64,000 bases of DNA, taken from Opisthorchis felineus. Taxonomy: Eukaryota > Platyhelminthes > Trematoda > Opisthorchiida > Opisthorchiidae. Under the pieces are notes generated by a model. The model was given only the letters and a program-made list of their open reading frames with translations. It was not told where the DNA came from and did not search any database. Positions 4,728 through 4,893 of this stretch are shown here, piece by piece; positions within the stretch are counted from its first letter, which is position 1, and each line of letters starts with the position of its first letter. The DNA lies in the NCBI GenBank assembly GCA_004794785.1, contig SJOL01008988.1, forward strand, positions 1,438,622 to 1,502,621, given 5' to 3'. The translations under genes and the position numbers were made by a program.

Positions 4728-4893
4728 TTATATATATTCGTAATGCACTACTCATAAGGTTGCTGAAAATTCTTCGACAGCCCACGACCGGTTTCGCCCT
4801 TCTTGAGGCTCATCAGGTAGGCGCAGTCCCGAGTTTCCGTCAACCTTATGTCCTACTTGAAACCAAATTGCTGGATCTCTCGTTTGTGATTGA
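4728..4893 (-). repeat. Retrozyme-like repeat (family C) with intact hammerhead
   Basis: This is a minus-strand family C copy. Reading the minus strand it runs from an internally deleted first half (a GAGAGATCCAG block joined directly to GCAATTTGG), through the hammerhead at 4822-4780, to the CAGCAACCTTATGAGTAGTG block and the ACGAATATA end. It is the only copy in the window in which the ribozyme core is fully conserved. The long plus-strand open frame 4718-5269 starts inside it and is a by-product. Confidence 0.85.
4780..4822 (-). ncRNA. Hammerhead self-cleaving ribozyme, core intact
   Basis: On the minus strand the order is GCCTAC (stem I, 5' strand), CTGATGA (core), a GCCT/GGGC stem II with a six-base loop, GAAA (core), ACC/GGT stem III and C (cleavage after GTC), then GTGGGC (stem I, 3' strand). 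Stem I pairs over all six positions with one G-U wobble. Stem II has three Watson-Crick pairs plus one wobble. Stem III has no loop bases: A-CCGG-T is a palindrome, so efficient folding probably needs two copies pairing through ACCGGT. Known minimal hammerheads of newt satellite, Penelope-like elements and animal retrozymes behave like this. Self-cleavage is inferred, not shown. Confidence 0.85.

What the first reader, a model, noticed from the sequence alone, without database searches (positions are those of the whole stretch)
4780..4822. Intact hammerhead ribozyme in an interspersed repeat
On the minus strand all invariant positions of the hammerhead core (CTGATGA and GAAA) are present. Stem I pairs over six positions, stem II closes with GCCT/GGGC and the cleavage triplet is GTC. 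The same structure is recoverable, with mutations, in the repeat at 6693-6735 and in relics at 10.8, 16.8, 43.9 and 53.8 kb. So it belongs to the repeat and is not a chance match.
Basis: partly seen in the sequence, partly recalled or inferred. Interest (0 to 1): 0.9.

Follow-up and report, generated by a model that had tools for sequence, protein, structure and literature searches.

The report
Self-cutting RNA in fluke mobile repeat
A flatworm genome carries thousands of copies of a short mobile repeat that encodes a self-cutting hammerhead RNA, and the way its copies sit in the DNA points to the kind of enzyme, from Penelope-like elements, that probably copied them.

Summary
The minus strand at 4780-4822 has a complete type I hammerhead core, cut site 4785/4786. 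It belongs to a high-copy repeat: 2413 exact copies of its 31-nt catalytic stretch lie in the 630 Mb genome, none of the reversed control. The repeat is a 307-nt unit, found as dispersed copies and tandem arrays, so it fits the animal non-LTR retrozymes. Stem III is a loopless palindrome, ACCGGU; two cores fold together as a double hammerhead without constraint, so it is probably active as a dimer.

New here is the insertion anatomy. Many copies are two head-to-head arms whose outer ends fall at two fixed unit positions, about 51 and 211 (38 of 47 ends); 12 of 32 insertions have 8-13 bp target duplications. A genome-wide count test agrees: continuation 0.52 and 0.53 across the sites, 1.03 at a control. 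Putative Penelope-like elements in the same genome have similar hammerheads and mostly end 36-45 nt past the cut. I infer that they mobilise this element; reviews name them only as candidates. Cleavage, circular RNA and trans-mobilisation are untested.

The parts
4780..4822 (-). Intact type I hammerhead core: stem I 4817-4822/4780-4785, cut between 4786 and 4785, stem III palindrome ACCGGU
4733..4871 (-). Retrozyme copy holding the hammerhead; its 3' end lies at site S1 (unit position 53). By eye it continues with an internal deletion to about 4892
   Evidence: continuation to 4892 read by eye
4753..4762 (-). 3' half of the distal extended stem I (10 pairs with 4841-4850)
4841..4850 (-). 5' half of the distal extended stem I
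6590..6622 (-). Short arm ending at S1, head-to-head with the next part
6620..6940 (+). Long arm (more than one unit turn) ending at S2 (unit position 211)
6693..6735 (+). Hammerhead of that copy with one core change (CUGAUGG)
365..374 (.). Left target duplication AACGGACAAT
375..450 (-). Arm ending near S1
439..609 (+). Arm ending near S2 (unit position 208)
616..625 (.). Right target duplication AACGGACAAT
10760..10852 (+). Decayed copy spanning the hammerhead
13852..13920 (-). Decayed arm
14111..14231 (+). Decayed arm spanning the hammerhead
16536..16675 (-). Decayed arm, head-to-head with the next part
16693..17005 (+). Decayed arm spanning the hammerhead
38189..38370 (+). Decayed copy
43862..44062 (-). 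Decayed arm spanning the hammerhead, head-to-head with the next part
44060..44138 (+). Decayed arm ending in the S2 region
53309..53583 (-). Decayed arm spanning the hammerhead
53624..53824 (+). Decayed arm; core CTGATGAG...CGAAAC at 53798-53824

Best explanation
The hammerhead is the ribozyme of a non-autonomous retroelement with a 307-nt unit (a non-LTR retrozyme). Inferred life cycle: tandem copies are transcribed; neighbouring hammerheads pair through the palindromic stem III and cut the transcript into units, which may be closed into circles; the RNA is then taken up by the machinery of a Penelope-like element (PLE). That enzyme cuts both target strands a few bases apart and starts reverse transcription on each strand at a fixed internal site of the RNA, S1 (about 51 nt after the cut) or S2 (about 211). 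The two cDNA arms meet head-to-head and are joined, mostly at 1-5 nt of overlap, leaving an 8-13 bp target duplication. Shown by sequence: unit, copy number, core, arms, the two end sites, target duplications, GIY-YIG-bearing PLE-like elements with hammerheads in the genome. Inferred: cleavage, circles, use of a PLE enzyme.
For: Three hammerheads 307 nt apart in L002, the two full units between them identical; arrays of 11 (C14) and 7 (C358) units among the 40 listed hits. Outer ends: 38 of 47 ends on arms of at least 90% identity fall in windows covering 11.4% of the unit. Two-arm insertions: 9 of 21 join S1 to S2, 0 join S1-S1, 0 join S2-S2, 12 have at least one end elsewhere. Target duplications of 8 or more bases: 12 of 32 insertions against 1 of 992 mispaired flanks. 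Count test: crossing/upstream 1745/3373 at S1, 3925/7400 at S2, 9077/8839 at a control. Junction overlap of 1-5 nt in 12 of 16. PLE-like elements: 148 GIY-YIG matches among 150 scored of 553 candidates, 15 of them in open frames of 814-878 aa, two pairs 2781 and 2889 bases apart; 3 of the 4 flanks fetched carry a short-stem-III hammerhead by eye, the fourth a broken one; of 16 leader relics of at least 40 nt, 9 end 36-45 nt after the cut, 3 at 63-71 and 4 elsewhere, and L045 and L048 show head-to-head arms, as does L043. The purified anole PLE cuts and extends both strands from two internal start sites downstream of its hammerhead (PMC11167929, parts 1-2 of 4 read), and rotifer PLEs have head-to-head pLTRs with 8-10 bp duplications (PMC3846280, passages). 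The double-hammerhead fold is the unconstrained minimum, -32.7 against -14.3 kcal/mol for one core. Circular fold of the unit z = -4.6.
Against: No cleavage, RNA or enzyme test. The S1 and S2 windows were drawn after seeing the ends. 15 of 32 insertions show one arm only, and 20 of 32 show no duplication of 8 or more bases. Arms run through the cut site, so their templates were not monomers cut at that site; circles are possible but not shown, and in the anole PLE the hammerhead is not needed for insertion in vitro. S2 lies 160 nt from S1, against 30-40 bp tails in PLEs. No sequence similarity beyond chance was found between the unit and the four PLE leaders, apart from a separate reversed copy beside L053. 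20-mer counts ran against a simple drop at S1: 3165 before, 8017 after; the segments differ in conservation. In old copies the core decays like the rest (31/171 against 185/887). Large identical arrays may be satellite amplification.
Confidence: 0.68

Rival explanations
1. The unit is simply the pLTR of a full-length PLE family, so the copies are fragments of that PLE and not an independent retrozyme.
For: Minimal stem III and insertion anatomy are PLE-like.
Against: 500-bp flanks of 33 insertions share nothing with each other apart from one overlap of the same stretch; the tandem copies in L002 consist of the unit alone; the leaders of the 4 PLE copies fetched (of 148 GIY-YIG matches) are unrelated to the unit.
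Confidence: 0.13
2. A LINE-mobilised SINE with a hammerhead, like the schistosome Sm-alpha and Sj-alpha elements, its inversions due to LINE twin priming.
For: Flukes have such hammerhead elements (PMC6155905, passages; Sj-alpha is called SINE-like in a title in the reference list of PMC8490949); 5' inversion is known for LINEs (recalled).
Against: Both outer ends are fixed, which twin priming does not give (recalled); no B box in the unit (best site has 3 mismatches); PLE-like copies of this genome share the footprint.
Confidence: 0.1
3. A satellite DNA amplified at the DNA level, in which the hammerhead is a passenger.
For: Arrays of identical 307-nt units, and a second 293-nt periodicity.
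Against: Dispersed copies with target duplications and fixed ends need an insertion mechanism.
Confidence: 0.06

Closest known systems
Metazoan non-LTR retrozymes (PMC7229834; abstract, Results part 1 of 3 and Discussion read)
   Same: 150-450 bp unit with a type I hammerhead, tandem multimers, target duplications longer than 4 bp, highly self-paired circular fold
   Different: Loopless palindromic stem III like PLE hammerheads; inverted two-arm insertions with two fixed end sites, which I did not see described in the parts read
Penelope-like elements (PMC11167929, parts 1-2 of 4; PMC3846280, passages)
   Same: Minimal dimer-type hammerhead, end site tens of nt after the cut, head-to-head arms, target duplications of similar size
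   Different: No room for an RT or GIY-YIG gene in the 307-nt unit, against repeats of about 2.8 kb here; two end sites 160 nt apart instead of 30-40
Schistosome Sm-alpha hammerhead repeats
   Same: Fluke, repeat with a type I hammerhead
   Different: Sm-alpha has a full hammerhead with tertiary contacts (PMC6155905, passages); no Sm-alpha sequence was compared here

Membership tests
Type I hammerhead ribozyme | Conserved core CUGANGA/GAAA and an NUH cut triplet | tested here: met
Type I hammerhead ribozyme | Curated covariance-model threshold | tested here: inconclusive
   Window copies below gathering though E 2e-4 and 0.0018; 1 of 20 sibling loci above
Type I hammerhead ribozyme | Three helices | tested here: inconclusive
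   Stems I and II present; stem III forms only between two copies in the predicted dimer; no covariation support
Type I hammerhead ribozyme | Self-cleavage | not testable with these tools
   needs an assay
Metazoan non-LTR retrozyme | Unit of 150-450 bp with a type I hammerhead, in tandem multimers | tested here: met
   307 nt
Metazoan non-LTR retrozyme | No larger LTR-like element around the unit | tested here: met
   500-bp flanks of 33 insertions unrelated; PBS and PPT motifs not searched
Metazoan non-LTR retrozyme | Target duplications longer than 4 bp | tested here: met
   8 bp or more in 12 of 32 insertions
Metazoan non-LTR retrozyme | Expression as circular RNA | not testable with these tools
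   no RNA data
Metazoan non-LTR retrozyme | Canonical hammerhead with loop 1-loop 2 contacts | not tested
   contacts not modelled; stem III is minimal
Penelope-like element | RT plus GIY-YIG ORF | tested here: not met
   The 307-nt unit has no room for it and flanks are unrelated. The unit is not itself a PLE
Penelope-like element | Head-to-head arms, fixed internal start sites, target duplication | tested here: met
   17 of 32 insertions two-armed, 38 of 47 ends at the two sites, 12 of 32 with duplication; it inserts like a PLE
Schistosome Sm-alpha SINE | Sequence relationship to Sm-alpha | not tested
   No Sm-alpha sequence compared; no B box in the unit

The most novel reading that the evidence does not exclude
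Each insertion is made by a pair of PLE enzymes on one retrozyme RNA, circular or multimeric, with one dedicated start site per target strand (S1 for one, S2 for the other). The hammerhead unit would then be a minimal PLE substrate, and this would be direct footprint evidence for the long-sought partner of an animal retrozyme.
Probability: 0.4. Interest if true: 0.8.

Novelty: new variant of a known kind. Interest (0 to 1): 0.58.

Why it matters
A review states that animal non-LTR retrozymes show no motif that reveals which autonomous element moves them, and PLEs are named only as candidates (PMC7761336 passages; PMC7229834 Discussion). This family carries an insertion footprint that argues for PLEs, is present in thousands of copies, and shares a genome with PLE-like elements in long open frames, so the question can be tested in vitro. 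[quoted passage not shown]

Tried and rejected
Covariation in the hammerhead: none usable. The 35 young copies have no double changes; in 15 old copies pairing in stems I, II and the distal stem equals the shuffle. So the structure rests on motif, covariance model and fold, not on covariation.

Single-core folding: the minimum of one core is not the hammerhead; the 130-nt module folds only modestly better than shuffles (z = -1.5). The antisense circle also folds well (z = -4.9), so circular self-pairing is not strand-specific.

20-mer counts around S1 gave the opposite of a simple drop; they compare segments of unequal conservation and were replaced by the 34-mer test. Its first plan and prediction were noted beforehand with 38-mers; lengths and exact positions changed, before any of these counts was seen. 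There was one control pair only.

Similarity of the unit to PLE leaders: only chance matches of 15-19 nt; L053 holds a reversed retrozyme-like stretch beside a PLE, not its pLTR. Tail-to-tail arms: one case, L011, with a decayed neighbour. Plasmid collection: no match for 201 bases. Rfam on PLE flanks L051-L054: no match up to E 1, so their hammerheads were found by pattern and eye. Of the four older window insertions with two detected arms other than 375-609 and 6590-6940, none showed a clear target duplication. RT domain of the PLE-like elements: not checked. Rows dropped: L001 (same place as the window) from all arm counts; ends within 5 bases of a locus edge; insertions under 93% identity or within 40 bases of an edge; leader matches under 40 nt before printing.

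Papers: the listings (4 papers; 3; 0; 25 shown of 6,503) showed no retrozyme or hammerhead report for opisthorchiids; these were judged by listing, and the library lacks most subscription papers. Two key PLE-hammerhead papers are not held.

Full report
Observation. The minus strand at 4780-4822 holds every conserved hammerhead position, six stem I pairs, four stem II pairs and the GUC triplet, with the cut at 4785/4786. Rfam finds it with E 2e-4 (HH9) and finds the 6.7 kb copy with E 0.0018 (type I), both below the curated cut-offs. One of 20 sibling loci passes the type I cut-off. A loose core pattern is expected 0.01 times in the window and occurs twice.

Source. The window lies in a 630 Mb assembly of 1848 contigs. 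A window ORF is 86% identical over 92% to an Opisthorchis viverrini protein, so I take it to be a fluke of that family or near it; the species is not established.

The repeat. The 142-nt module gives 2426 first-look candidates; 40 were scored and 41 matches listed, 40 of them 94-100% identical and one 85%. A 31-nt stretch spanning the catalytic part occurs exactly 2413 times, the reversed control 0 times. With 3 mismatches, two 34-mers before and into the hammerhead occur 8839 and 9077 times. L002 has three hammerheads 307 nt apart. The 40 listed hits include arrays of 11 and 7 identical units; other arrays have a 293-nt period, a second subfamily. In 20 random 10-kb stretches the unit covers 1386 of 200,000 bases; in the window 2332 of 64,000, so the window is rich in it. 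The stretches were drawn from the 27 contigs of the best hits, so that density may be biased. Matches in the random set are 68-89% identical, while the best genomic copies are nearly identical: the family is old and has recently active or amplified members.

The ribozyme. Stem III is ACCGGU without a loop, so a single copy can hardly close it. Folding two 43-nt cores together gives the double hammerhead as the unconstrained minimum, -32.7 kcal/mol against -14.3 for one core in another fold. This matches newt and PLE hammerheads described as dimeric (PMC6155905 and PMC7761336, passages). In 35 young copies the 12 core positions differ in 3 of 420 cells, stems in 42 of 1390, other positions in 65 of 2702; in 15 old copies the core decays like the rest. 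No covariation was found. The 307-nt circle folds at -100 kcal/mol, z = -4.6; S1 and S2 lie in or next to predicted hairpin loops at 44-54 and 204-208.

Insertion anatomy. Unit position 1 is the first base after the cut; S1 and S2 are my names. Of 32 insertions with at least 93% identity, 17 consist of a minus arm followed by a plus arm, 5' ends facing, and 15 show one arm. Outer ends on arms of at least 90% identity: 17 of 47 at 43-60 (S1), 21 of 47 at 203-219 (S2), 9 of 47 elsewhere, against 11.4% expected in both windows together. The windows were set after viewing the list. Of 24 ends on more decayed arms only 6 fall in the windows, as blurred ends would. Among 21 two-arm insertions of any identity, 9 are S1-S2, 6 S2-other, 2 S1-other, 4 other-other, none S1-S1 or S2-S2. 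Exact target duplications of at least 8 bp flank 12 of 32 insertions, against 1 of 992 mispaired flanks; in the window, AACGGACAAT at 365-374 and 616-625 flanks the copy at 375-609. Neither 4780-4822's own copy nor the 6.7 kb copy has one. Arms overlap by 1-5 nt at 12 of 16 junctions, whose positions are scattered along the unit. The loci were chosen by containing the hammerhead module, which hides ends before about position 47 in the main arm.

Genome-wide test. If arms end at S1 and S2, sequence crossing a site should be rarer than sequence just upstream. S1: 1745 against 3373 (0.52). S2: 3925 against 7400 (0.53). Control inside the unit: 9077 against 8839 (1.03). The earlier 20-mer comparison at S1 went the other way (3165 before, 8017 after); I put that down to unequal conservation of the two segments, which was not tested.

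The likely enzyme. The same genome has 148 GIY-YIG matches (150 of 553 candidates scored; one at 44 bits, the others under 30), 15 of them in open frames of 814-878 aa, and two pairs 2781 and 2889 bases apart. I read these as PLEs; their RT domain was not checked. Of four flanks fetched, three carry a short-stem-III hammerhead (CTGAYGA...GAAACNTT) and the fourth a broken one. In the sampled sequence 16 leader relics of at least 40 nt, some with weak E-values up to 0.06, end as follows: 9 of 16 between 36 and 45 nt after the cut, 3 between 63 and 71, 4 elsewhere; L043, L045 and L048 show head-to-head arms. Of the unit's 17 S1 ends, 15 lie 49-58 nt after its cut. The anole PLE enzyme cuts and extends both target strands, starts inside its RNA at two sites beyond the hammerhead, and its genomic copies end there. 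Rotifer PLEs have head-to-head pLTRs, a tail on one of them, and 8-10 bp duplications. The fluke element copies this pattern in miniature.

What is not shown. Cleavage, circular RNA, transcription and trans-use of a PLE enzyme. Arms passing the cut site (for example 855 nt in L002) show that templates were circular, multimeric or uncut. In the anole system the hammerhead was dispensable for insertion in vitro, so the ribozyme may serve processing or circle formation and not insertion.

Verdict. By kind it is a non-LTR retrozyme with a PLE-type hammerhead. I did not find the insertion footprint described for a retrozyme in the listings or in the passages read.

Noticed in passing
window 22424-22505 + (also 60888-60964 -, 41956-42037 -, 13413-13525 +, 13151-13200 -): Relics of PLE leaders with minimal PLE-type hammerheads; the one at 22424 keeps CTGACGA, GAAA and GTT and ends 44 nt after the cut.
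   Followed up: partly
window 35060-37024 +: Open frame with an Amidase_2 domain (44.1 bits), 86% identical to an Opisthorchis viverrini amidase.
   Followed up: partly
G000 C192:65113-66335, C188:36180-36816: Arrays of a second subfamily with a 293-nt period.
   Followed up: no
window 9977-10351 +: Frame that by eye resembles a LINE reverse transcriptase fragment; no Pfam match.
   Followed up: no
window 5328-5421: Two tandem copies of a 48-bp unit, 87% matches.
   Followed up: no
unit positions 182-195 in L007, L008, L014, L027: Four arm ends at 182-195, possibly a minor third start site.
   Followed up: no
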